From positions 1 to 35,488 of IMG/VR virus record IMGVR_UViG_3300021197_001195: a stretch of DNA of 35,488 nt. One strand, given 5' to 3'. The stretch comes from a virus. The first letter of the stretch is position 1; each line of letters starts with the position of its first letter. Below are positions 1 through 30,800 of this stretch, one piece after another. A model generated the notes under the pieces. That model made no database searches. It had not been told where the DNA came from and worked only from the letters and a program-made list of their open reading frames with translations. The position numbers and the translations under genes are program-made.

Positions 1-1787
1 GTTCTTGCCCACTCAGCGGTATGAGAGGATGCCATCTTGTTGAGGGTATCAGTTTGCTTGTACCCGCTGCCCATTACAGCGGCGGCGCTTGATGCCTGCC
101 TGAATACGTTTGCATAAGAAAGATTTGAGCCTTCAGAGAAGCTCAGGTTGTAGTTGTTAACAAGGGACAGTCCAGCAGCTCCCGCGTTTGTGTTCCCCAC
201 CGTCAAGTTGCCTGACGTATCGATGCGCATGCGTTCTGTAGTAGAGTTTGCAAAAAACTTTAACGCACCTCTTTTATTGCCTATGTCTACGTCAGCTAAG
301 TTGTTACCTACGAAAAACTGCTGTGCGTCAGAGGTAACATTGTTGTTGTAAGTGCTGATCTGGGCTGTTCCGTCTTCAGTGCTATCCTTGACCCGCAGTT
401 CTCCCGCAGGAAGCATAAACACGCCAATAGCGTTCTCCACTAAACCAGCAGAAGAAGAGACAGAGACATTCCCTGACCCATCAATACGCATGCGTTCTGT
501 GCCACTATTAGAAAAAGTCAGACCTGTGCTGGATGCGGGGTTATCAATAATCCAACTTTCAACACTGTCTTGGAAAAGTTGTATTCCTGCCGCCGTACCA
601 GAAGCAGTATTGACCATTAATTTTGACGTATTAGAAGCTGCGCCTTCGCCAACCTTAGTCGTTCCAACAATGGCTAGCTTTGCTGAAGGACTGCCAGTGC
701 CAATACCAACATTCCCGCTTGAGTCAATTTTTAATCTATTAGCTGAACCATTGTATATGTTGAAAGTGCCGCCAAAGTTTGAAATATCCCACTGAACATT
801 GCTTGTATTCTTTAAAGACAACGCTGGGTTTGCTCCACCCACCTGAGCAACACTGGCCCACCCAAGAGCGTTGGTGACGGAGCTAGTGCCAATACCAACA
901 TTCCCTGACGAGTCAATACGCATGTATTCTTTGTCGTAGCCTTCAATGGCTAAATAGCCATTAGCTGGGGTCGCGGCCCACGCTTGTATCTTGGTTCCAC
1001 CAGACGTGTTGCCGTTGGCAATGTTCAAAATGCCGTTAGCGGTGTCTATGGTTAATGCAGAGTATGGTGAGGCACTGCCAATACCAACATTCCCTGACGC
1101 ATCTATGCGCATGCGCTCTGTACCAGAACCTTCTGATCCGCCAACTTCAAAGATTAAATTTGATGCGTTGCTTGACCATGTATGCTGCAAGTGCGTACCA
1201 CTTGAATCAAAGTAAGTAACCAATCTGGGATTGTTTGTGCCATCTGCTTCCTCTAACTTCACTTGCAAACTAGAGTTGCTCACAGTCAGTCCAGCAGCCG
1301 TTACTGCGCCTGAGATGTCTAGTGTCTGAGCAGTAGTTGTACCACTTAATACAGCATTAGAAACATTGGCGGCCAAACCACTCAAAGCATCTGTTACTGC
1401 CGCGCCAGATCCGGCACCGTCAGTCACAATCATCTTCACAGCGCCAGCAGGCACCGCCACGTTAGCGCCAGAGCCCTGGCTAAAGGTCAGTGTGTAAGAC
1501 GTTTCGTTTGAAATAATCCAAGTTTTTGAAATCGTGTTTGGCGCAAAAGTCACGGTGCATGCCTGGCCACCGCCAGTGCATTTCAAGTACATGCTACGCG
1601 CTTCGTCTGCAGCGCCATCTGCCAGGGTGATTGTGTGCGTCGATGCGTTAGGGATAGCCTCGCTGCCCTGACCGAATGCTGACGCCAGGTTGCTGATCGT
1701 CGTGTTCAGCAGGCCGCCCCAAGTGCCACTGTTCGATCCGGCTTCTTGCTCACGAACGCGCAAGTCATTATTAAAAGTATCAGCCAT
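1..1787 (-). CDS. Phage tail fibre protein with RIDSSGNVGIG repeats (C-terminus cut by the window)
   Basis: The reading frame opens at an ATG at 1787 (MADTFNNDLRVREQ) and stays open through position 1, so about 595 residues are visible and the C-terminus is missing. The N-terminus has the look of a virion-attachment fibre domain. From about residue 220 there are five copies of a motif near (M/L)(R/K)IDSSGNVGIGT, at plus-strand positions of about 1077-1123, 891-926, 700-734, 467-499 and 197-238, separated by Asn/Ser/Thr/Gly-rich spacers. This motif is typical of long phage fibres that usually end in a peptidase S74 intramolecular chaperone. The chaperone would lie beyond the window, so its presence is inferred. 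The product should be a trimeric receptor-binding or side fibre. It starts 10 bases after the stop of the neighbouring repeat protein and is probably co-transcribed with it. Confidence 0.8.
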   Translation of the reverse strand, partial: MADTFNNDLRVREQEAGSNSGTWGGLLNTTISNLASAFGQGSEAIPNASTHTITLADGAADEARSMYLKCTGGGQACTVTFAPNTISKTWIISNETSYTLTFSQGSGANVAVPAGAVKMIVTDGAGSGAAVTDALSGLAANVSNAVLSGTTTAQTLDISGAVTAAGLTVSNSSLQVKLEEADGTNNPRLVTYFDSSGTHLQHTWSSNASNLIFEVGGSEGSGTERMRIDASGNVGIGSASPYSALTIDTANGILNIANGNTSGGTKIQAWAATPANGYLAIEGYDKEYMRIDSSGNVGIGTSSVTNALGWASVAQVGGANPALSLKNTSNVQWDISNFGGTFNIYNGSANRLKIDSSGNVGIGTGSPSAKLAIVGTTKVGEGAASNTSKLMVNTASGTAAGIQLFQDSVESWIIDNPASSTGLTFSNSGTERMRIDGSGNVSVSSSAGLVENAIGVFMLPAGELRVKDSTEDGTAQISTYNNNVTSDAQQFFVGNNLADVDIGNKRGALKFFANSTTERMRIDTSGNLTVGNTNAGAAGLSLVNNYNLSFSEGSNLSYANVFRQASSAAAVMGSGYKQTDTLNKMASSHTAEWAR

Positions 1788-1797
1788 TATCTATTCC

Positions 1798-3705
1798 TTA
1801 CGCTGCCTCTTGCCATGATGTGCTGGCACTGGGCTGTTTTGTGTATGTGGTTGTGCTGTCGCTCTCAGCCGACCAGCTAGTTGTGGCAGAGGGCTGAACT
1901 AGGTAAATCGTGCTCGCGCCAGATTCGTCTGCCCAAGCCGTCGTTGCGCCTGGTTCGGTTTGCCATTTGATTTCACCGTTCGCTGCAACGCCGCTTTGTG
2001 CAGAGATCGCTGCAGAGCCAAGTCGGATCTGACCGCCGCCTGCTACTACCGTCGAGACTGCATCAATCGACGCTGCGCCAACTTGGATTACAGAAGCCGC
2101 TGCAGAGACAGTGCTGTTAGCCGAGACTTGCGCGGCGCCAGTTGTGATCGACAACGCAGTCGCGCTGACTGACGACGCTGCAGTGATTGCGACATCTGCG
2201 CTTCTACGCCTTTGCGCATCAGCCGTAACAGATGCTGCAGATTGCAGTGCAGCCGCTGCATTTCGTAGCAATGCTGCGCTTGCAGAAACGCTCGATGCCG
2301 CGTCGATTGCAGCCGCTGCAGAAACGATGACATTGGAGTCAGCGCTGATGGCGCTCGATGCGCTGACATTCGCACTTCCGGCAACCACCGTCACTGCCGC
2401 TGAACTTATTGTTGAAGAAGCAGCGATCAGCGCCTGGACGTTCTCGAATTTTTGGCCGGTTGCTGTAATTGTTGCAGCTGAAGCCAGCGCAGCAGAACCA
2501 AATCGGATGCGTCCGCCACCAGCTGAGACACTTGAGCTCGCAGCGACAGCTGCAGCGGCACTCGTCAATGTGATTGCGTCAGCGCTTACTGAGCTCGATG
2601 CAGCGATGTCTGCTGCAGACGCAACGACAGTCACAGACGAAGCAGAGAATGCAGAAGCAGCCGCAATCGCGGCCTGGCCGTTTCTTCGCCTTTGACCGGC
2701 AGAGACAATTTGCGACGCGCCTGCAATGACGACACTCGCCGGTCTAATGCGACCAGCTACAGCACTTACCGCAGAGCTCGCTGCGATGCTTGCTTCAGCC
2801 GTCGTGATCGATTGGCCAGCAGACGTAATTCTCGACGTTGCGACGACCAGGGCATCGAAATTTCTAAAGCGTTTTGCAGCAGCAGTAATCGTAGACGAGC
2901 TCGCAAGAAGCGCTTGTGCAGCCTTCGTGCTTACACTGGTCGCTGAGATCGCAGAAGCCGCGTTTAGCGACGCGGCAGCGGAAACGACAGTAACGGCGCT
3001 TGCGCCGACCGTCGCGCTGCTTGCTAAGGACGCCTGGTTATTTCTAAACCTTTGCGAATCCGCAGAAACAGTTGATGAGCAAACGATTTCAGAACTCGCA
3101 GTCCTCGTTCGCTCCGCGTCCGCAGAGACCGCAGAGACTGCGTCAATCGCTGCAGCCGCACTCGTAATGATCTCAGCATCTGCAGAAACGCCTGATGCAG
3201 ATGAGATGGTGACTGACGACTTTGTGATAACTTCTGCGTCAGCCGAGATACTTGATGACGCAGAAATTGCAACAGCCGCTGGGGATATGACTTCCGCTGA
3301 AGCTGCAATAGAAGATGTCTCGGTGATCGCAACAGACGATCCAGAGATGACTTCCGCTGCAGCTGCGATCGAAGACGACGCAGAGATTGCGACAGCTGAG
3401 CCCGATATGACTTCAGCGCTTGCTGCCAATGAGGACGATGCGGCAACCAGCGCGCTAGCGGTTCTAAAACGTATCGCCGAACTAGAGACCGAAGACGTGC
3501 TGGCAATGCTCGCGTTTGCCGTGCGAGCTCGCTTGCCAGCGGCAGAAACCACAGAAGCAGAATTGACAGCTGCGCCAGAGATCGCAATGACCTGCGGAGC
3601 CACTGCCACAGCCGATGAAGTTGTGACAGTCGCACTAGCATCGACATAACTCCACTGGCCATATCGTCCCTCACCAAAACTGCCGTAACCCCACCCTTGA
3701 CTCAT
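1798..3705 (-). CDS. Ala/Ser-rich fibrous virion protein built of 20-residue repeats
   Basis: This is a 635-residue protein of very low complexity. Residues 1-16 (MSQGWGYGSFGEGRYG) form a Trp/Gly-rich start of a kind often seen in phage virion proteins. Residues 17-576 divide into 28 units of exactly 20 residues with no insertion or deletion. The loose consensus is xxxIxxxAAxIxAxSxVSAx, with alternating Ala/Ser and aliphatic residues. Residues 577-635 carry a different, shorter repeat (QPSATTSW, QPSASTSW) with Trp and Thr. Strict register and alternating polarity suggest a regular beta-solenoid or another extended fibre, which is inference. The gene overlaps the upstream gene by one base (TGATG) and is followed by the tail fibre gene, so a fibre or host-surface role fits. 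No enzymatic motif is visible. Confidence 0.8.
   Translation of the reverse strand: MSQGWGYGSFGEGRYGQWSYVDASATVTTSSAVAVAPQVIAISGAAVNSASVVSAAGKRARTANASIASTSSVSSSAIRFRTASALVAASSSLAASAEVISGSAVAISASSSIAAAAEVISGSSVAITETSSIAASAEVISPAAVAISASSSISADAEVITKSSVTISSASGVSADAEIITSAAAAIDAVSAVSADAERTRTASSEIVCSSTVSADSQRFRNNQASLASSATVGASAVTVVSAAASLNAASAISATSVSTKAAQALLASSSTITAAAKRFRNFDALVVATSRITSAGQSITTAEASIAASSAVSAVAGRIRPASVVIAGASQIVSAGQRRRNGQAAIAAASAFSASSVTVVASAADIAASSSVSADAITLTSAAAAVAASSSVSAGGGRIRFGSAALASAATITATGQKFENVQALIAASSTISSAAVTVVAGSANVSASSAISADSNVIVSAAAAIDAASSVSASAALLRNAAAALQSAASVTADAQRRRSADVAITAASSVSATALSITTGAAQVSANSTVSAAASVIQVGAASIDAVSTVVAGGGQIRLGSAAISAQSGVAANGEIKWQTEPGATTAWADESGASTIYLVQPSATTSWSAESDSTTTYTKQPSASTSWQEAA
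1978..3657 (-). repeat. 28 tandem 60-bp (20-codon) coding repeats
   Basis: The coding sequence of residues 17-576 of the Ala/Ser-rich protein is an uninterrupted array of 28 units of 60 bp. Units differ strongly at DNA level, so this is an old, diverged array rather than a recent expansion. The most similar neighbours are units encoding AEVISGSAVAISASSS, AEVISGSSVAITETSS and AEVISPAAVAISASSS. Some units carry a basic RxR triplet at positions 3-5 (RFR, RIR, RTR, RRR) and others a hydrophobic VIS/VVS. The array also creates long antisense open frames, because Ala and Ser codons read openly on the other strand. Confidence 0.9.
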
Positions 3706-4088
3706 CAGTCTAAGGTGATGTCCACGTCACCAGCTGGGAATCGAAAAACGTCGCCGGTCTCGATCGTTCTGCTAGACGTCAGATTAGACCATCCCAAGAA
3801 ATTTCCGCTGGAAGATGCGTCGAAGATGCCAACAGCGACAATCGTGCCCCAGTTGCCTGTGGCGGTTGGGAAGTCAACGGCGGATGCGTTCGTTGACGCA
3901 GCGCCCGTTGTCGTGAACGCGCAACTTTGACGCGCATAGGCACTACCACTTAGCTCTGTGCCACCACCGGCGTCCGTTGGCGCACTGGTAAAAAGACCAA
4001 GGTACACTGTGCTTGGGCTCGTGTAAGACGTGTTGCTGAACGCATGCGCCAGCAATTTGTTTTCTAGGTAGTCAGAAAATCCAGCCAT
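3705..4088 (-). CDS. Small phage tail/fibre-associated protein (Gp80-like family)
   Basis: The protein has 127 residues and begins MAGFSDYLENKLLAHAF, followed by YLGLFTSAP and ELSGSAYARQ, and later by TGNWGTIVAVGIFDA and SGNFLGW. This pattern matches a widespread family of small phage structural proteins encoded next to tail fibre genes, sometimes annotated as Gp80-like or tail fibre protein. The fold is probably all-beta. No enzymatic residues stand out. Its exact place in the virion is unknown; its position between the adaptor and the repeat fibre suggests a link between tail and fibre. Its stop overlaps the next start by one base, so translation is probably coupled. Confidence 0.6.
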   Translation of the reverse strand: MAGFSDYLENKLLAHAFSNTSYTSPSTVYLGLFTSAPTDAGGGTELSGSAYARQSCAFTTTGAASTNASAVDFPTATGNWGTIVAVGIFDASSSGNFLGWSNLTSSRTIETGDVFRFPAGDVDITLD

Positions 4089-4097
4089 TTTAGTTTC

Positions 4098-4724
4098 CTA
4101 TTGGAGCGCAGCGGCTCTCATCTTCACGCTGGTCTGACCAGCTGTTCGTTGGTTTGAAATTTCCAGGTCATCGATCGCGCGCTGATATAGGCTCGCCCAA
4201 ACCTGAATTCTTTCGTCGTTCTGCAAATACGGCGCGCTTTGCAGCAGCGTCCCGTAGAGGTAGATGTCGGGGTTATGTGTCAGTAACCAGTTTGTTGTGT
4301 TCGAGTCTGAGAGCGCGTCGATCTTGCCGTAATACACGAGCTCTGCCGTGTAGCCTGTAGACGTGTTGTCGGGCGCCGGAAAAACCTGGATCTCAGTGCC
4401 GACATGCGAATAATGACTCGGCGTGCCTGTCGCACTGCTGCCGCTTTTGAGCCCGTTAAGCGCCTCGTTAGTGACGTACTCCATCTGCGTCACAGGGTTG
4501 GTCTCGAGAATCAGACTCACCGTCTGTATCCAATCCGCCGGTGTTGCGCTGTATTCGCTGTCAATCGTCGCCTGAGACCGAGTAATCATGTAGCGATGGC
4601 GGATGCTGCGGTTAAACTGCGATTCCGCCAAAGCCACAAAGTCACCTATCGCACTCGTCAAATCCGTGCGGTTTAGCCAATCTGCTACGCTCGCCTGGAG
4701 CTCTGAGTACGTTGCGATCGCCAT
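4098..4724 (-). CDS. Head-tail adaptor protein (SU10-like / P22 gp4-like role)
   Basis: This 208-residue protein begins with a helical segment (TYSELQASVADWLNR) and continues with FVALAESQFNRSIRHRYM, then TPADWIQTVSLIL and a C-terminal part with YQRAIDDLEISNQRT. The helix arrangement and the position just downstream of the capsid match the phage adaptor family seen in SU10-like and other podoviruses, which binds under the portal and forms the first ring of the neck. It abuts the upstream small gene (shared base at 4724). The family assignment is from pattern recognition, not a search. Confidence 0.65.
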   Translation of the reverse strand: MAIATYSELQASVADWLNRTDLTSAIGDFVALAESQFNRSIRHRYMITRSQATIDSEYSATPADWIQTVSLILETNPVTQMEYVTNEALNGLKSGSSATGTPSHYSHVGTEIQVFPAPDNTSTGYTAELVYYGKIDALSDSNTTNWLLTHNPDIYLYGTLLQSAPYLQNDERIQVWASLYQRAIDDLEISNQRTAGQTSVKMRAAALQ

Positions 4725-7062: not shown

Positions 7063-7292
7063 CACGAATTCCGTTGTTTTGCGAAAGCAATCTCGTCGGC
7101 TGCTGCGCGCATGCGCACAACAATGTCGTCAAGGGCTTCCTGTTTTTGATGTAAGCGCTCCCGCATAGCGGGGTCACGTTCCTTGCACCACAGCTCGAAG
7201 AAATCGAGCCTTAGCATCTTGATGAGCTCGGCGAAGTCTTCGTCGTCCGCCAAGCGTTGGATGTTGAGTAGCGAGTTATGCGACAGGGGCAT
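7062..7292 (-). CDS. Small helical phage protein between portal and scaffold
   Basis: The protein has 76 residues and is almost entirely predicted helix (FAELIKMLRLDFFELW, then RERLHQKQEALDDIVVRM). It overlaps the portal gene by 17 bases at its start and the scaffold start by one base at its end, so it is translationally coupled on both sides. Small helical proteins at this place are common in podovirus head modules, but no function is established. A chaperone or portal-scaffold linker role is possible only by position. The ATG at 7292 lies inside the portal frame. Confidence 0.6.
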   Translation of the reverse strand: MPLSHNSLLNIQRLADDEDFAELIKMLRLDFFELWCKERDPAMRERLHQKQEALDDIVVRMRAAADEIAFAKQRNS

Positions 7293-9357
7293 TCGGCACC
7301 TGTTGTTGTGCGGCCAGCTGTCTTACGAGCTCGCGGTCGCGTTCTGAGTTAGCTCGGATGCCGGCAACATCGACCTGCGCGCCATACCTGGCAGCAATCT
7401 CAGCCGCCTTGAGCGCAATGTCTGCCTCGTCTTTGTCGCGCCGGCGATCGTCTTCGCGCTGCATCTTTTCGCGCTCGAGATCCAACTCTGCTTTTTTCTT
7501 CTCTATGTTCGCGTTGATCTCTGCCATCTGAACCTGGATCAGCTGCTCGTTTATGTCCGGCTTTGGCGGCTCCGGTGGTGTTGGAGGCTGCTGACTTGGG
7601 TCTTTGAAGAACCGCTGCGGGTCTTTGAAGCCAGAGACTTCGAGTATTTGCACCAGCGTCTGGTAGTAGTTCTCGACGCTGACCAGTGGATTTTCGGGGC
7701 CAAGTTGCTGCAATAGCTGCTCTTGCTTCTGCGCGACTTGCTGCAACATCTGCATGCGCTCAACGTCGCCGCCCTTGCCTAGCGCCACATTGCTCACAAC
7801 GTCCATGTCGGCGTTCCAGCGATCAGGGCTCATGGGCACAAACGTGTTGCGCAGCCTGATCATCCGCGGCTTGTCCATGTGCTTGATGATCAGCTGCAGC
7901 AAGCCCTTATAGAGCCGCGTCATGCCGCCATCGGCGAACAGCCTGGCAATCATCTCGGTGCGCTGCTGAGCGGCCCCAATCGTCTGCTGTACGGCCATTA
8001 ACGTGGAGCTCTGCAATGCGCTAGGGTCGAGCCCGTCAGCCGCCTTAGAGACGCCTGTGCGGTTCTCACGCATCTGGTCTAGGTAATCCAGCATCGGGAA
8101 TGCTTCTTTGCCGACAAAGGGCAAATTGAACGGCACCACGGCGCCAGGCTGACGCATTCTGATCACGCCGCCGGCTTCGTTGTTCATCACGTCTTCTAGG
8201 CTCGCTTGGCCTTCGACAATGCCCACCCTGGGGTGCGTGCTCATCGCCAGGCTGTCCAGGCTTGCCCGCAACACGGCGGTCTTGATCCGCTGTATGTCCA
8301 TCGTCAGGTCAGCGATCGACATGCCAAACATCGCGTGCGGCTCTGGATCTGGGCAGAAGAACGCAAACGGCACCATGTCGGTCGGCTCGTTGCGCAAGAT
8401 TTCGTAGTTAGGGCCAGCGCAGCAAATGCGTCGCAATTCGGCAACGCCATCGCCGTCTGTGTCGATCTTGGCGTATGCCTCAACGTAAAGAACGCGGCGC
8501 ACCATCTCCGAGTTTTCAAACGAGCTCTGCTGATAGCGCTCGCGGGCCTCGACGTTGAAGAGCTCAAAGTCTGTGTCGCTGGTGGTGGCGTATTGCTCAA
8601 TCTCGTCAGCGTCGTAGCCGAGCTCAACCATGTCGCTGATGGTCAGGTAAGCGCGGTGCGCGACCAGGTCAGCGTCTTCCAGGCTGCGAGCATTGCGATT
8701 AATGACAATTTCTTCTGGCGGCACTGACTCGACCTTGATCTTGCCAACCTTCTTGCGGTGCGTGACGCGAACGGAGTGCATCGCCTCTGGGTTGTCGCTC
8801 GACGTCATGCTTTTCAGCATGTCGATCTCAACGTCTGGGTTACTGTTGAGCGCAGCCAGTGCCTGGTCGTCTAGGTTTTCGAGCTCGTAGCTCTGCGTAT
8901 TCTCTGACTCGTCGTAGCAATATTTGATGAAGCCAGAGCCCTTCACCAGAGCGTCTTTCATCGTGGCGTAGATGATCTCGATGTACGACTGATCCTGGTC
9001 TTGGTTCAGTATGTAGTTAACGTAGTCGGTCGCCTGCTTCGCCATCTCGACGTCTTCAGGGCCGGTCGGTGCGTATTCCACAACGTGGTCAGAGCCACAG
9101 AAAATGCGCATAAGAGACGGCAGCATCGCCTGGACGGTATCGCGCACGTCCATCGTTTGTGCGGTACTGCGGCCCTCTTCTTCGTTGCCCAGGGGCTCGC
9201 CGGCGTAGTACTCGGCTGCCTCTGCGCGCTGGGGCGAAATGGTGTTGTCGATGAAGTCCACGGCATCTTCGATGGCGAGCGTGATCGCGGCTTGGATCTC
9301 TTCGTCGCCCATGCCCATTTCTTCTTCAATAAATTCGTCTTCGTATTGTTCTGCCAT
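7276..9357 (-). CDS. Portal protein (SU10/P22-like podovirus type)
   Basis: The protein has 693 residues. An acidic N-terminus is followed by DAVDFIDNTISPQRAEAAEYY, TMDVRDTVQAMLPSLMRIFC and YATMKDALVKGSGFIKYCYD, the characteristic segments of large podovirus portals. The C-terminal 120 residues form a charged coiled coil (KKKAELDLEREKMQREDDRR) ending in a Gln/Pro-rich tail, which would be the barrel or tail reaching into the capsid. Length agrees with P22/SU10-type portals (about 700). The dodecameric ring forms the DNA entry vertex and docks terminase. The gene lies between the virion metallopeptidase and the scaffold module. Small terminase is not adjacent but near 15680. Confidence 0.9.
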   Translation of the reverse strand: MAEQYEDEFIEEEMGMGDEEIQAAITLAIEDAVDFIDNTISPQRAEAAEYYAGEPLGNEEEGRSTAQTMDVRDTVQAMLPSLMRIFCGSDHVVEYAPTGPEDVEMAKQATDYVNYILNQDQDQSYIEIIYATMKDALVKGSGFIKYCYDESENTQSYELENLDDQALAALNSNPDVEIDMLKSMTSSDNPEAMHSVRVTHRKKVGKIKVESVPPEEIVINRNARSLEDADLVAHRAYLTISDMVELGYDADEIEQYATTSDTDFELFNVEARERYQQSSFENSEMVRRVLYVEAYAKIDTDGDGVAELRRICCAGPNYEILRNEPTDMVPFAFFCPDPEPHAMFGMSIADLTMDIQRIKTAVLRASLDSLAMSTHPRVGIVEGQASLEDVMNNEAGGVIRMRQPGAVVPFNLPFVGKEAFPMLDYLDQMRENRTGVSKAADGLDPSALQSSTLMAVQQTIGAAQQRTEMIARLFADGGMTRLYKGLLQLIIKHMDKPRMIRLRNTFVPMSPDRWNADMDVVSNVALGKGGDVERMQMLQQVAQKQEQLLQQLGPENPLVSVENYYQTLVQILEVSGFKDPQRFFKDPSQQPPTPPEPPKPDINEQLIQVQMAEINANIEKKKAELDLEREKMQREDDRRRDKDEADIALKAAEIAARYGAQVDVAGIRANSERDRELVRQLAAQQQVPNAPVA

Positions 9358-11141
9358 TAGAAAATATCCAATAAGGATTCACCGACTAGTCTGGCGCGCT
9401 GCGGTAACTGGCGAGCCATATCGGCAATGGGTTCTAGGGGTTCTAGCAAACTGCCAGCTGCAGACATGGGCGCAGCCAAAGCGCCGCCGATGGCACGTTG
9501 TGCGCTTTCGCTTGCTTGTCGGCCAATGTCGGTGCGTGGCTGGTAGTCAAATGCGGATCGAGCTTGCTGCTGCGTTTGCGCCATCTGTGGCGTTGTGACC
9601 GGCAACGGCGCTTGTTGCATGACCAAGCTGGAAGTCATTAGCGGCTCAACAAGTCCGCTTGCTGCGTTTGCTAGGAAGTCGGCGCCGCCAAGCACGCCTT
9701 CAGTGAAGCGTTGCGCTGGTGTGGATTGTGAGACTGTTGGCATCTCGCCAAACTCATTTGCAGCAAGCAGGCTCCCGCCTCCTATCGCTGCTGTGGGCAT
9801 TAAAGCTGCAGGTGTTGCGAAACCAGCGTTTTGGCCACGCTGCATGGGGCTATCTGGGAAGAGTTGAGAGGCGCGCGGCACGTCCTCAGTATCAGGAGGA
9901 TAGCTTTCGTATCGCTCCTGCGGCGTCATTCCTAAACGTGTTTGCACGTTACGCGCCTCAACCTCGCCAGCCGTTCTTTTGTAAAGGTCATAGGGGTCAG
10001 CGGTTTGTATTTCACGCTTCCGCGTCTTAATTTGATGCAATTCTTGCGCTTTGCCGCGACGCTTATCTAAATACCGCTCGACCCTAGACCGAGCGCGCTT
10101 GAGCGACTGCAGATCGGTCGTGTCTAGCGAATCGGGGCCAACGTCTATGCGCAAAAGACCCATAGCCTCACCGCGCTTGGCGTTAAGCACACGGTTTAGA
10201 TTTTGATAGTCATAGGCCGTTACGCGGTTTCTCTCCATGTCTGCTAGCTGTTGCCAAGCAGCACTGAGCCACGCGTTTCGCTCTGCTTTGGGTCTGTGGC
10301 GCTTTGGCATCACGCCTAGACGTCGCGTGATCTCGTCGCCGTGCTGATACCACTGACTGTTACCAAAAAGCAGGCGTTGTTTTCCGGTTAGATTCTCGTC
10401 GCGCGATAGCTGCTCGTATCTCTTGAGTCGCTCGAATTTACCCAAAGAGCGCAAGCCCTCGATGGCATTGTCAAATTCCCTAGCTACTTCCGATAAATCA
10501 CCTAACCCATCTCCGCGATCGAAGTTACGCAGCAATCTGTCTTGTATTTCTTGGGCGTTTGCCCCACCAGCCATGCCTTGAGAGGTCTGCGCGGCGTGCT
10601 GAAGCTCGTGCATAAACACACTGCGAGCCATTTCTGGGTCTGCCAACAGACCTTCTTCTATGGCTATTTGATTTTTGAAAGGACTGTATGTGCCTCTGTA
10701 ACCAGCTGAAGATAAACGCTCGTCAGCGATAACCTGTGGGGTGCCGATATTGTCAGCCAACAACGAGCCGTAATCAGAGTCCAAAACATCAGTAGTCAGT
10801 TGCCGCACGTCTGCTTGACGAGGAAGCAAACCAGAAACGCGGGCCTCATCGTCAGGAACCTCAAATCTTATGCCCCCATCAGCGCCTTTGAAAAATCCCG
10901 TTTCCGAATAAATTTTGCGAGGCGATTCGTTGCGCGCATACATTTCCTGCGCTTTCGCTAGATTCTCTTGCGTTGCTTTTTCTGGCAAAAAGTCGCCACG
11001 CTCCTGCGCTCTTAACAAACGTTCAGGGCGCGCTTTGAGAAAAATCGCCTCCGCATCTTCGGGCGTGGCAAGCAGTCCAGCGCCAACGGCTACTGGTGCC
11101 GCCGCTTTGGCTACATCTAGCAGGCCACCAGCGACTGCCAA
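9357..11141 (-). CDS. Virion-associated metallopeptidase-like protein (polyvalent/LPD23-like domain)
   Basis: Start is a TTG at 11141, directly after the TAA of the upstream gene and about seven bases after a strong AAGAAGGG ribosome site. The 594-residue product has an HExxH zinc motif (HELQH, residues 178-182) in the helix SVFMHELQHAAQ, and a conserved YKRTAGEVEARNVQTR at 387-402, whose Glu could be the third ligand. This HExxH plus GExEAR pairing is characteristic of peptidase-like domains in large polyvalent phage proteins that travel with injected DNA. The middle is charged and helical. The C-terminal third has Ala/Gly-rich, mildly hydrophobic stretches. Its place between terminase and portal suggests a virion or ejected protein. 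Substrate unknown. Confidence 0.7.
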   Translation of the reverse strand: MAVAGGLLDVAKAAAPVAVGAGLLATPEDAEAIFLKARPERLLRAQERGDFLPEKATQENLAKAQEMYARNESPRKIYSETGFFKGADGGIRFEVPDDEARVSGLLPRQADVRQLTTDVLDSDYGSLLADNIGTPQVIADERLSSAGYRGTYSPFKNQIAIEEGLLADPEMARSVFMHELQHAAQTSQGMAGGANAQEIQDRLLRNFDRGDGLGDLSEVAREFDNAIEGLRSLGKFERLKRYEQLSRDENLTGKQRLLFGNSQWYQHGDEITRRLGVMPKRHRPKAERNAWLSAAWQQLADMERNRVTAYDYQNLNRVLNAKRGEAMGLLRIDVGPDSLDTTDLQSLKRARSRVERYLDKRRGKAQELHQIKTRKREIQTADPYDLYKRTAGEVEARNVQTRLGMTPQERYESYPPDTEDVPRASQLFPDSPMQRGQNAGFATPAALMPTAAIGGGSLLAANEFGEMPTVSQSTPAQRFTEGVLGGADFLANAASGLVEPLMTSSLVMQQAPLPVTTPQMAQTQQQARSAFDYQPRTDIGRQASESAQRAIGGALAAPMSAAGSLLEPLEPIADMARQLPQRARLVGESLLDIF

Positions 11142-28756: not shown

Positions 28757-29184
28757 TAAATGAGTCCTCGTTGAGCGTCGTTAAAATAGCCTGTGGGCAA
28801 CTGGACTGCTCGCTCTGCAGAGCCGTAGTCAGAAAGACCTTGGTTCATAAAAGCCTGCGCGCGCTGCCTGCTTCGGGCATTAGCGATTCTTTCTTTTTCC
28901 AGCGAACCATCTAGCGCCATACGCATACGTTGCTCCGCGTATGCAGCTGGATCTTGTACTAGGCTAGTCAGCGAATCGAAACTTGGCTGCACTGTGTTCA
29001 TAACGTACTCGCCAGGATTGCTTATAGCGTTTCCGATCTCATCGACCCTTTCGCCTAGCAACTCGCGCATGGTTTTTTCGTCTGGGGCCGGCAATTTCTC
29101 TATATCGTCCTCGCTGCTAAGCAAAGCATCCGGCAATCCTGCAGCAGCTGATGCTGCAGCCATCATCTTGCTAAACATAGCCAT
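28756..29184 (-). CDS. Small virion-type protein, 142 residues
   Basis: The protein has 142 residues. An Ala/Met-rich start (MAMFSKMMAAASAAAGLPD) could act as a short membrane-active helix. The rest is polar and helical (EERV-type segments such as TMRELLGERVDEIGNAI, and EKERIANARSRQRAQAF). It is not recognised. It shares its start and stop bases with neighbouring internal-protein genes, so it is coupled with them. A minor internal or ejection protein is the most economical reading. Confidence 0.55.
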   Translation of the reverse strand: MAMFSKMMAAASAAAGLPDALLSSEDDIEKLPAPDEKTMRELLGERVDEIGNAISNPGEYVMNTVQPSFDSLTSLVQDPAAYAEQRMRMALDGSLEKERIANARSRQRAQAFMNQGLSDYGSAERAVQLPTGYFNDAQRGLI

Positions 29185-30800
29185 TATGAAATCCCCGCGT
29201 TAAACCCGCTGCCTTTGCTCGCACTCGTCAGCGGATTAGGCAGCAAGCCAGCACCACTTCTAAGCACGTCGAACATGCGGAATGGGTACTCTCTGGCCTC
29301 TGCAAATCTGCGGTAACGATCGTCAAGCAGCTGCTGCCCTGCCGCTTGCTGCTGAGCACCTACGCCTTGGAGCGCCGCAGCGTCTGCAAACTGAGTGCCG
29401 CGCAAGTCGCCGCCTAGGTTTGCCAGCTGAGCAGCTGCACCCTGGCGCATACCAGACGCCTGCATGCCGGCACGTTGATTGGCGAGCGCCGCTTGCAGGC
29501 CAGCGTCTGCGTTAAAGCGCTGAGCGTCGAAGCCTAGCTGCTGACTGCGCAGTGCGGCATTTTGGTTAGCCAGGGCTGCACGCATTTGCGCATCCTGATT
29601 CGCCAGCTGTCCGCGCTGCCCTAGTTGCGCGGCCTGAATGTTTCCTTGCTGAGTTGCCTGTTGCGCTGCCAGGTTGTTTGCTGCGTTTAGCTGACCGGCG
29701 CGCATAAAGTTTGCGGCTGACGTGGTATCGGCTGCCAAGCCTGCTTGCTGGTTGGCAAGCGCTGCACGCATGTTGGCGTCCTGCGAAGCCAAGCCGCTTT
29801 GCAAGCCCATCTGAGCCATCTGCTGGCTCGCTTGTTGAGCTCGACCTGCAGTGTCCTGCGCTGCCGTCAAAGACGCCCGCTGATTTGCTTGCTGGCGAGC
29901 CAAGTCAGCCTGCAGGTTTTGCCCGCCAGCTGTTAGGCCGGCTTGCTGATTAGCGAGCGCCGCCTGCTGACCAAACTGCGCCGTCTGCATGCCGGCTTGC
30001 TGAGCTCGATTGAGATCCGCCTGCGCTTGCTGCTGCGCGTTCTGGAAGCCTTGCTGGCGCAGGTTGACTGCTGTGTCCGCTGCTTGTCGCGCGAAATTCC
30101 TGTTCGTTTCTGCTTCGACCAGCGCCTGGCGATCGCCGCCGAACGCGCCAGCCGACACTGCGCTTGCTGCGTTTTGATTCTGCGTCATCTGCCGCGCTCG
30201 ATCTAAGTCGCCGAGCGCCGCGTCAATAACGCCAGAGTCGTATTGGTTTTGATAAGGCGTCAGATTCGTTTGCGCCAGGCTTTGCCCTGCAACGGTTTGG
30301 CCCTGCACCTGTTGTGCTTGCACTGGGGTTAAGCCGCCGATTTGTTGGGCGTTGATGCCTTGGCTTTGAATGTTACCGACACCCACTGGCCCTGTTGGGC
30401 CTACTTGCTGCGCCCCTACGCCTTGCGATTGAACCTGCTGGTTATTGATTGGAGCAAATCCAAATCCGCTCTGCACGTTCGATGCGCCTACATTGCCAAC
30501 TTGACCTGGCGCATTGATCGACCCAGCGGTTACTTGCGTAGGCTGAAAGCGGGCCTCCGCTCGCGTCGTTGCGATCGCGTCGTTGATCTCGCCCTGGCCT
30601 ACGCCGGCACGCGCCGTGTCTGCGGCCATGTTCATGCCTTCTAGCTGCGCAGGCGCCAAGGGCGCAATCGTTGCGTAGTTGTATGGCGTGTATGGCGTTG
30701 CAGCGACACGTTGCCCTTGTCGGAACGTGTCGGTCAGCATGCCTTTGAGCTCTGGATCGAATGTTTGCTCAGAGCTCTGCTTGTTTTTGCCTAAACTCAT
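29184..30800 (-). CDS. Ala/Gln-rich repetitive internal virion protein
   Basis: The protein has 538 residues with an extreme Ala/Gln/Asn bias. The first part has QSQGVGAQQVG and QSQGINAQQIG repeats. A conserved centre (TPYQNQYDSGVIDAALGDL, then SAVSAGAFGGDRQALVEAET) matches a widespread marine phage structural protein type. The C-terminal half repeats a MRAALANQxAxLxA unit about five times and is a continuous helix. The end (RYRRFAEAREYPFRMFDVL) is conserved-looking. Long Ala/Gln helices are typical of ejected internal proteins that line the DNA channel. Function is inferred. Confidence 0.65.
   Translation of the reverse strand: MSLGKNKQSSEQTFDPELKGMLTDTFRQGQRVAATPYTPYNYATIAPLAPAQLEGMNMAADTARAGVGQGEINDAIATTRAEARFQPTQVTAGSINAPGQVGNVGASNVQSGFGFAPINNQQVQSQGVGAQQVGPTGPVGVGNIQSQGINAQQIGGLTPVQAQQVQGQTVAGQSLAQTNLTPYQNQYDSGVIDAALGDLDRARQMTQNQNAASAVSAGAFGGDRQALVEAETNRNFARQAADTAVNLRQQGFQNAQQQAQADLNRAQQAGMQTAQFGQQAALANQQAGLTAGGQNLQADLARQQANQRASLTAAQDTAGRAQQASQQMAQMGLQSGLASQDANMRAALANQQAGLAADTTSAANFMRAGQLNAANNLAAQQATQQGNIQAAQLGQRGQLANQDAQMRAALANQNAALRSQQLGFDAQRFNADAGLQAALANQRAGMQASGMRQGAAAQLANLGGDLRGTQFADAAALQGVGAQQQAAGQQLLDDRYRRFAEAREYPFRMFDVLRSGAGLLPNPLTSASKGSGFNAGIS

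What the first reader, a model, noticed from the sequence alone, without database searches (positions are those of the whole stretch)
1978..3657. 28 exact 20-residue repeats in a virion protein
Residues 17-576 of the 635-residue protein fall into 28 units of exactly 20 residues with no indels, alternating Ala/Ser with aliphatic residues, and with RxR or VIS triplets at fixed positions. No standard fibre repeat I know has this register with this composition; a beta-solenoid with one turn per 20 residues is the natural hypothesis. Regular ice-binding or adhesin solenoids would be structural analogues.
Basis: partly seen in the sequence, partly recalled or inferred. Interest (0 to 1): 0.8.

Follow-up and report, generated by a model that had tools for sequence, protein, structure and literature searches.

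The report
Repeat-built phage fibre protein beside gp80
This marine virus makes a long all-beta protein from 28 similar 20-residue blocks, and its relatives carry the same protein with 7, 11, 21 or 22 blocks, nearly always encoded right next to a known tail-fibre protein (gp80), so it looks like the variable-length shaft or rope of a phage fibre that no database searched has named.

Summary
ORF 1798-3705 (-) encodes 635 aa: a 16-aa G/W/Y cap, exactly 28 x 20 aa without indels, and a C-cap of W/Y decapeptides. Residue identity at lag 20 is 0.37 (shuffle maximum 0.23). Relatives in IMG/VR share both caps and differ only by whole units (7, 11, 21, 22 or 28). The window protein has no Pfam, PHROG, NCBIfam or PDB-sequence match. 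The gene next door (3705-4088) is a homologue of gp80, fibre I protein of podophage GP4. In 80 gp80 loci from IMG/VR, 43 of 51 distinct genes directly downstream have period 20, against 3 of 298 control ORFs; those 3 are the same kind of protein, displaced. In reverse, 47 of 47 repeat-protein loci with enough upstream sequence have gp80 upstream. Units carry aliphatic ladders at positions 4, 11 and 17. AlphaFold2 gives two strands per 20 aa and no helix: pLDDT about 64-80 over the middle units of a relative, only 44 for the window segment. Foldseek's PDB hits are mostly beta-solenoids but not significant. Most likely this is the beta-repeat shaft or 'rope' of a gp80-type fibre, with length set by unit number. 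The solenoid reading is favoured, not proven.

The parts
3658..3705 (-). N-terminal cap, residues 1-16 (MSQGWGYGSFGEGRYG), G/W/Y-rich
   Evidence: Conserved in the 7-, 11-, 21-, 22- and 28-unit relatives
1978..3657 (-). 28 tandem 20-residue units (residues 17-576); big hydrophobics at unit positions 4, 11 and 17; A/G/S at 1, 7, 9, 13, 15, 19; polar variable residues between
   Evidence: Autocorrelation, family unit profile, AF2 all-beta
1801..1977 (-). C-terminal cap, residues 577-635: W/Y decapeptides (..GEIKWQTEP GATTAWADES GASTIYLVQP SATTSWSAES DSTTTYTKQP SASTSWQEAA)
   Evidence: Length in complete relatives is 29, 39 or 59 aa, i.e. steps of 10
1798..3705 (-). whole repeat-protein gene (635 aa)
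3705..4088 (-). gp80 homologue (127 aa; podophage GP4 fibre I protein family), directly upstream; its stop codon overlaps the repeat gene's start by one base
   Evidence: Pfam PF23140 E=3.9e-46; PDB 8jou_a E=2.7e-9; pairing test
4098..4724 (-). SU10-type head-tail adaptor, upstream neighbour placing the locus in the neck/tail region
   Evidence: PF24175 E=2.3e-35
3..1787 (-). putative tail-fibre gene downstream (595 aa read, runs off the record; no Pfam hit)
   Evidence: its start resembles the phiM5 'host-binding tail fiber'

Best explanation
The protein is the beta-repeat shaft or scaffold ('rope') of a neck/tail fibre built together with the gp80-like protein encoded just upstream. The G/W/Y N-cap would dock one end. 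Each 20-residue unit would form one coil or rung of an elongated beta structure, most simply a single-chain beta-solenoid with an inward Ile/Val ladder at positions 4, 11 and 17 and Ala/Gly/Ser in between. The W/Y decapeptide C-cap would finish the other end. The number of units (7 to 28) sets the fibre's length and perhaps how many gp80 subunits it carries. Shown: exact 20-aa units, integer length variation, purifying selection, near-obligate genetic pairing with gp80, and a regular all-beta prediction for a relative. Inferred: incorporation into the virion, solenoid topology, physical contact with gp80, and the polarity of the caps.
For: Unit counts are only integers: 7, 11, 21, 22 or 28, with both caps kept. 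The gp80 pairing: 43/51 downstream genes have period-20 z>4 versus 3/298 controls, and those 3 controls are the same kind of protein displaced further downstream in exception contigs; in reverse, 47/47 repeat-protein loci with at least 420 bp upstream have gp80 upstream, 42 within 120 bp of the listed match start and 5 where that start lay inside the repeat protein. The same unit profile follows gp80 in phages MW202462, phiM5, C72C1 and MEP402 (profile z 72, 8.7, 7.5, 15). GP4-type phages also have a period-20 protein after gp80; in BcepIL02 and BcepMigl both are annotated virion-associated, and the CSP3 and BcepIL02 proteins are PHROG 19041 'virion structural protein'. Selection at inward positions. 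AF2 and Foldseek.
Against: The window segment model is low confidence (pLDDT 44) and Foldseek hits are not significant. The GP4-type repeat proteins share period and position but not the unit profile (z about 0), so 'same rope' is by analogy. In JC1 virions the gp80 homologue was found by mass spectrometry but the repeat protein was not (PMC9144972 Table 6); in phiM5 the repeat gene is not among those flagged as found in the particle. That the GP4 paper describes a rope linking gp80 dimers is from my memory of its abstract; the paper is not held.
Confidence: 0.5

Rival explanations
1. A homotrimeric beta-fibre shaft (intertwined or prism type), like many tail-fibre shafts, that works beside gp80 without binding it; low single-chain AF2 confidence would reflect the missing partner chains.
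For: Tail-fibre shafts are usually trimeric (general knowledge). AF2 of the window segment without partners was weak. The W/Y decapeptide C-cap could be a trimerising end (inference).
Against: A single chain of relative L145 is already modelled with regular strands at block-mean pLDDT about 64-80 over the middle units. The pairing with gp80 is near-obligate, although a conserved operon could explain part of that.
Confidence: 0.25
2. An extended rope: the units are not a solenoid but separate strands that thread through and complement a chain of gp80 subunits, one or two units per bead, so the protein is ordered only in the fibre.
For: PDB 8jou holds 10 gp80 chains, and the GP4-like CSP3 repeat protein has roughly 11 units (my count by eye from the sequence). 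Bead-chain neck fibres exist in A-1(L) (PMC10966104).
Against: Odd unit numbers (7, 11, 21) do not fit two units per gp80 dimer. The three-ladder pattern per 20 residues is typical of solenoids. The stoichiometric match rests on one phage and a rough count.
Confidence: 0.15
3. A receptor-binding or host-surface adhesin whose variable unit number reflects selection by the host rather than a shaft length.
For: A similar protein in another phage is annotated 'serine-rich adhesin'. Outward positions are the variable ones.
Against: No recognised tip, enzymatic or lectin domain. dN/dS 0.34 shows constraint. A separate tail-fibre gene lies downstream.
Confidence: 0.1

Closest known systems
Podophage GP4 fibre I (gp80, PDB 8jou, Pfam PF23140) and the gene next to gp80 in Bcep22-like phages (PHROG 19041)
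   Same: A gp80 homologue directly upstream, and a roughly 20-aa periodic, caps-plus-units protein directly downstream
   Different: The unit profile is not recognisably shared; composition and caps differ; the window protein has 28 units versus roughly 11
Sinorhizobium phage phiM5 gene 18 and MW202462 'serine-rich adhesin'
   Same: Same position after gp80 and same unit profile (z 8.7 and 72); W-repeat C-cap
   Different: Far fewer units; annotated hypothetical or adhesin; no work on function found here
Single-chain beta-solenoids (ice-binding DUF3494 proteins, SufB/SufD, pectate lyases)
   Same: They dominate the Foldseek PDB hits
   Different: E-values 0.2 or more, TM mostly about 0.3 or below, no sequence match; an exact 20-aa coil was not checked in them
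Anabaena phage A-1(L) bead-chain neck fibre (gp80/gp81/gp82 of that phage)
   Same: Idea of a bead-chain fibre on the neck (PMC10966104)
   Different: There the length comes from about 14 copies of one protein trimer; the shared gene number gp80 is coincidental; no homology tested

Membership tests
gp80-type fibre locus (GP4 fibre I) | gp80 homologue adjacent | tested here: met
   PF23140 E=3.9e-46 at 3705-4088; 8jou_a E=2.7e-9
gp80-type fibre locus (GP4 fibre I) | period-20 partner protein beside gp80 | tested here: met
gp80-type fibre locus (GP4 fibre I) | sequence homology of the partner to the GP4-like partner (PHROG 19041) | tested here: not met
   Unit-profile z about 0 for CSP3, BcepMigl, POI1126; no PHROG hit for the window protein
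gp80-type fibre locus (GP4 fibre I) | physical link to gp80 in the virion | not testable with these tools
   needs cryo-EM or pull-down
beta-solenoid | regular beta strands with one coil per repeat | tested here: inconclusive
   Regular 5+11 strands per 20 aa in relative L145; window segment pLDDT 44; Foldseek not significant
beta-solenoid | inward aliphatic ladder at fixed positions | tested here: met
   Positions 4, 11, 17 hold big hydrophobics in 82-100% of window units and 88-95% of family units; that they point inward is inferred
Filamentous haemagglutinin repeat (PF05594) | Pfam match above cut-off | tested here: not met
   Only E=0.39, 11.9 bits versus cut-off 21.5, for relative L007; none for the window protein
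Trimeric tail-fibre shaft | three chains per shaft | not testable with these tools
   only single chains can be modelled here

The most novel reading that the evidence does not exclude
The unit number is a built-in ruler: each 20-residue unit binds a fixed number of gp80 subunits, so the phage encodes the length of a bead-chain fibre in the copy number of a DNA repeat, across a large group of marine podoviruses.
Probability: 0.15. Interest if true: 0.75.

Novelty: new variant of a known kind. Interest (0 to 1): 0.55.

Why it matters
It defines an unnamed but widespread phage protein family (no Pfam, PHROG or NCBIfam model matches the window protein) that travels with gp80, and it makes the partner of gp80 in these fibres a concrete, testable gene in many marine phages. 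Integer variation from 7 to 28 units on a constant chassis is a natural experiment on how fibre length is encoded, and exact 20-residue beta units are attractive modules for designed fibres.

Tried and rejected
Compositional artefact: rejected by shuffles, integer indels and selection. Super-repeat of 7 units (7, 21, 28 are multiples): no lag-7 signal in protein or DNA. Two units per gp80 dimer (lag-40 signal in some relatives): not general, and odd counts exist. Shared unit profile with GP4-type and mycobacteriophage repeats: not supported. Haemagglutinin repeat: below cut-off. GP4 and its close relative P2110 were not in the collection under their accessions. The diverse gp80 alignment was too variable for a scan. 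Phage tblastn with the window protein found nothing, probably in part because low-complexity masking is on. Literature searches found no description of the repeat. The genome scan gave only three loci, one of them a 7,746-base contig in a MAG labelled Opitutia that matches the L006 contig in length and in its gp80 coordinates, probably mis-binned.

Full report
OBSERVATION. The window is a 35,488-bp IMG/VR virus record with SU10-type capsid, portal and adaptor proteins. ORF 1798-3705 on the minus strand encodes 635 residues. Residues 17-576 tile into exactly 28 units of 20 residues. Residue identity at lag 20 is 0.369, with harmonics at every multiple of 20 up to 120; the highest value over lags 2-100 in 500 shuffles is 0.23. 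The DNA has its strongest lags at multiples of 60 (0.44 at lag 60), which suggests descent by duplication, but the units have diverged (neighbours share about 7 of 20 residues). The C-terminal 59 residues keep the register but are W/Y decapeptides.

RELATIVES AND INTEGER LENGTHS. Two scans of viral contigs gave full-length relatives with the same caps. The repeat region measures exactly 140, 220, 420, 440 or 560 residues, i.e. 7, 11, 21, 22 or 28 units, in the 41 distinct proteins measured (lengths listed). The C-cap is 29, 39 or 59 residues, i.e. 10-residue steps (one further value belongs to a contig-end truncation). MAFFT alignments place gaps of 20 residues between clades. Between the window and L002 (92% DNA identity) dN/dS is 0.34 in the repeats, and amino-acid changes avoid the inward-type positions (13/252 versus 40/308, p=0.002).

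THE NEIGHBOUR. The gene directly upstream, 3705-4088, matches Pfam 'Podophage GP4 fiber I protein gp80' (E=3.9e-46) and PDB chain 8jou_a (E=2.7e-9, 10 chains). I tested the pairing systematically. A scan with this gp80 found 566 related stretches in IMG/VR, of which the best 80 loci were kept. Among 51 distinct complete proteins directly downstream of gp80, 43 have a period-20 z-score above 4 and 45 have their best lag at 20 or 40. Among 298 other plus-strand ORFs in the same loci only 3 reach z>4, and all 3 are the same kind of protein lying further downstream in contigs that were exceptions. In reverse, among 47 repeat-protein loci with at least 420 bp upstream, 42 have gp80 within 120 bp of the listed match start, and in the other 5 gp80 is also upstream but the listed start lies inside the repeat protein. 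The 80 loci are the closest gp80 relatives, so the test covers this part of the family; conservation of one virion operon could account for part of the pairing.

ANNOTATED PHAGES. The same arrangement with the same unit profile occurs in Sinorhizobium phage phiM5, phage C72C1, Methylophilales phage MEP402 and MW202462 (profile z 8.7, 7.5, 15.4 and 72 against shuffles). In GP4-like phages (CSP3, BcepIL02, BcepMigl, POI1126, PBC5) the gene after gp80 also has period 20, but the unit profile is not shared (z about 0), so homology there is unproven. BcepIL02_gp55/gp56 and BcepMigl_gp56/gp57 are annotated virion-associated, and the CSP3/BcepIL02 protein is PHROG 19041, virion structural protein. 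Against this, the JC1 virion proteome lists the gp80 homologue gp53 but not gp54 (PMC9144972 Table 6), and the phiM5 record does not flag gene 18 as found in particles.

FOLD. Over 251 distinct family units, big hydrophobics occupy position 4 (90%), 11 (95%) and 17 (88%); positions 1, 7, 9, 13, 15 and 19 are mostly Ala/Gly/Ser; the others are polar and variable. Single-chain AF2 of window residues 437-635 with a 26-row alignment in unit register is all-beta with no helix but weak (pLDDT 44, pTM 0.37). AF2 of the 217-residue relative L145 with 30 rows gives a 5-residue and an 11-residue strand about every 20 residues, block-mean pLDDT 64-80 over residues 71-180, pTM 0.56, and no helix. Foldseek against the PDB returns mostly beta-solenoids (ice-binding proteins, SufB/SufD, PL3 pectate lyases), none significant (best E 0.21); against viral models the best hits are largely uncharacterised phage proteins (best E 5.5e-3, prob 0.98). 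The coordinates could not be read, so parallel stacking and handedness are inferred.

MECHANISM. I take the protein to be the length-setting shaft or scaffold of a gp80-type fibre. From memory of the abstract of the GP4 structure paper (pmid 37660940, not held), its chain-like fibres are gp80 dimers linked by an elongated rope protein; if that is right, the gene beside gp80 is the natural rope candidate. No sequence similar to the CSP3 partner is in the PDB. Whether the units form a solenoid rod or an extended rope through gp80 beads is open; I favour the rod.

NOVELTY. No Pfam, PHROG, NCBIfam or PDB-sequence match exists for the window protein. The kind (beta-repeat fibre protein) is known; the exact 20-aa family, its integer copy-number variation and its near-obligate pairing with gp80 appear undescribed in the papers searched, with the caveat that most subscription papers are not held.

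Noticed in passing
L087:4765-5964 and L090:4824-5981 (mycobacteriophages Lolly9, ChrisnMich): Minor tail proteins with a Gly_rich_2 C-terminal domain carry period-20 repeats and sit directly upstream of a gp80-family gene, so gp80 and 20-aa repeats also meet in mycobacteriophages, in the opposite order.
   Followed up: partly
L086:5962-6354 (phiCbK gp72): A gp80-family protein lies just after the head genes of Caulobacter phage phiCbK, followed by a 647-aa protein without period 20; possibly linked to that phage's head appendage.
   Followed up: no
L036:5389-6219 (residues 9-32) and nozzle-like gene L036:6220-7878 (residues 413-436): The N-cap of the repeat protein in MW202462 (TLDSLDNLKASLDDLTLSLDSALY) matches a segment of the same phage's stabilisation protein (58% over 24 aa, E=2e-5); perhaps a shared docking motif.
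   Followed up: partly
L035 (Venkman) 7259-9451: A 730-aa protein with a strong 17-residue period, annotated FhaB-like adhesion protein; another repeat-built phage protein of different register.
   Followed up: no
window 29184-30800 (-): 538-aa Gln/Ala-rich protein with internal near-repeats; only a weak PHROG hit; possibly an internal virion/ejection protein.
   Followed up: no
window 1-35488: No exact direct terminal repeat of 12 bases or more; the downstream tail-fibre gene runs off the left end. Related circular phages are 34.7-34.9 kb, so the record may be nearly complete.
   Followed up: partly
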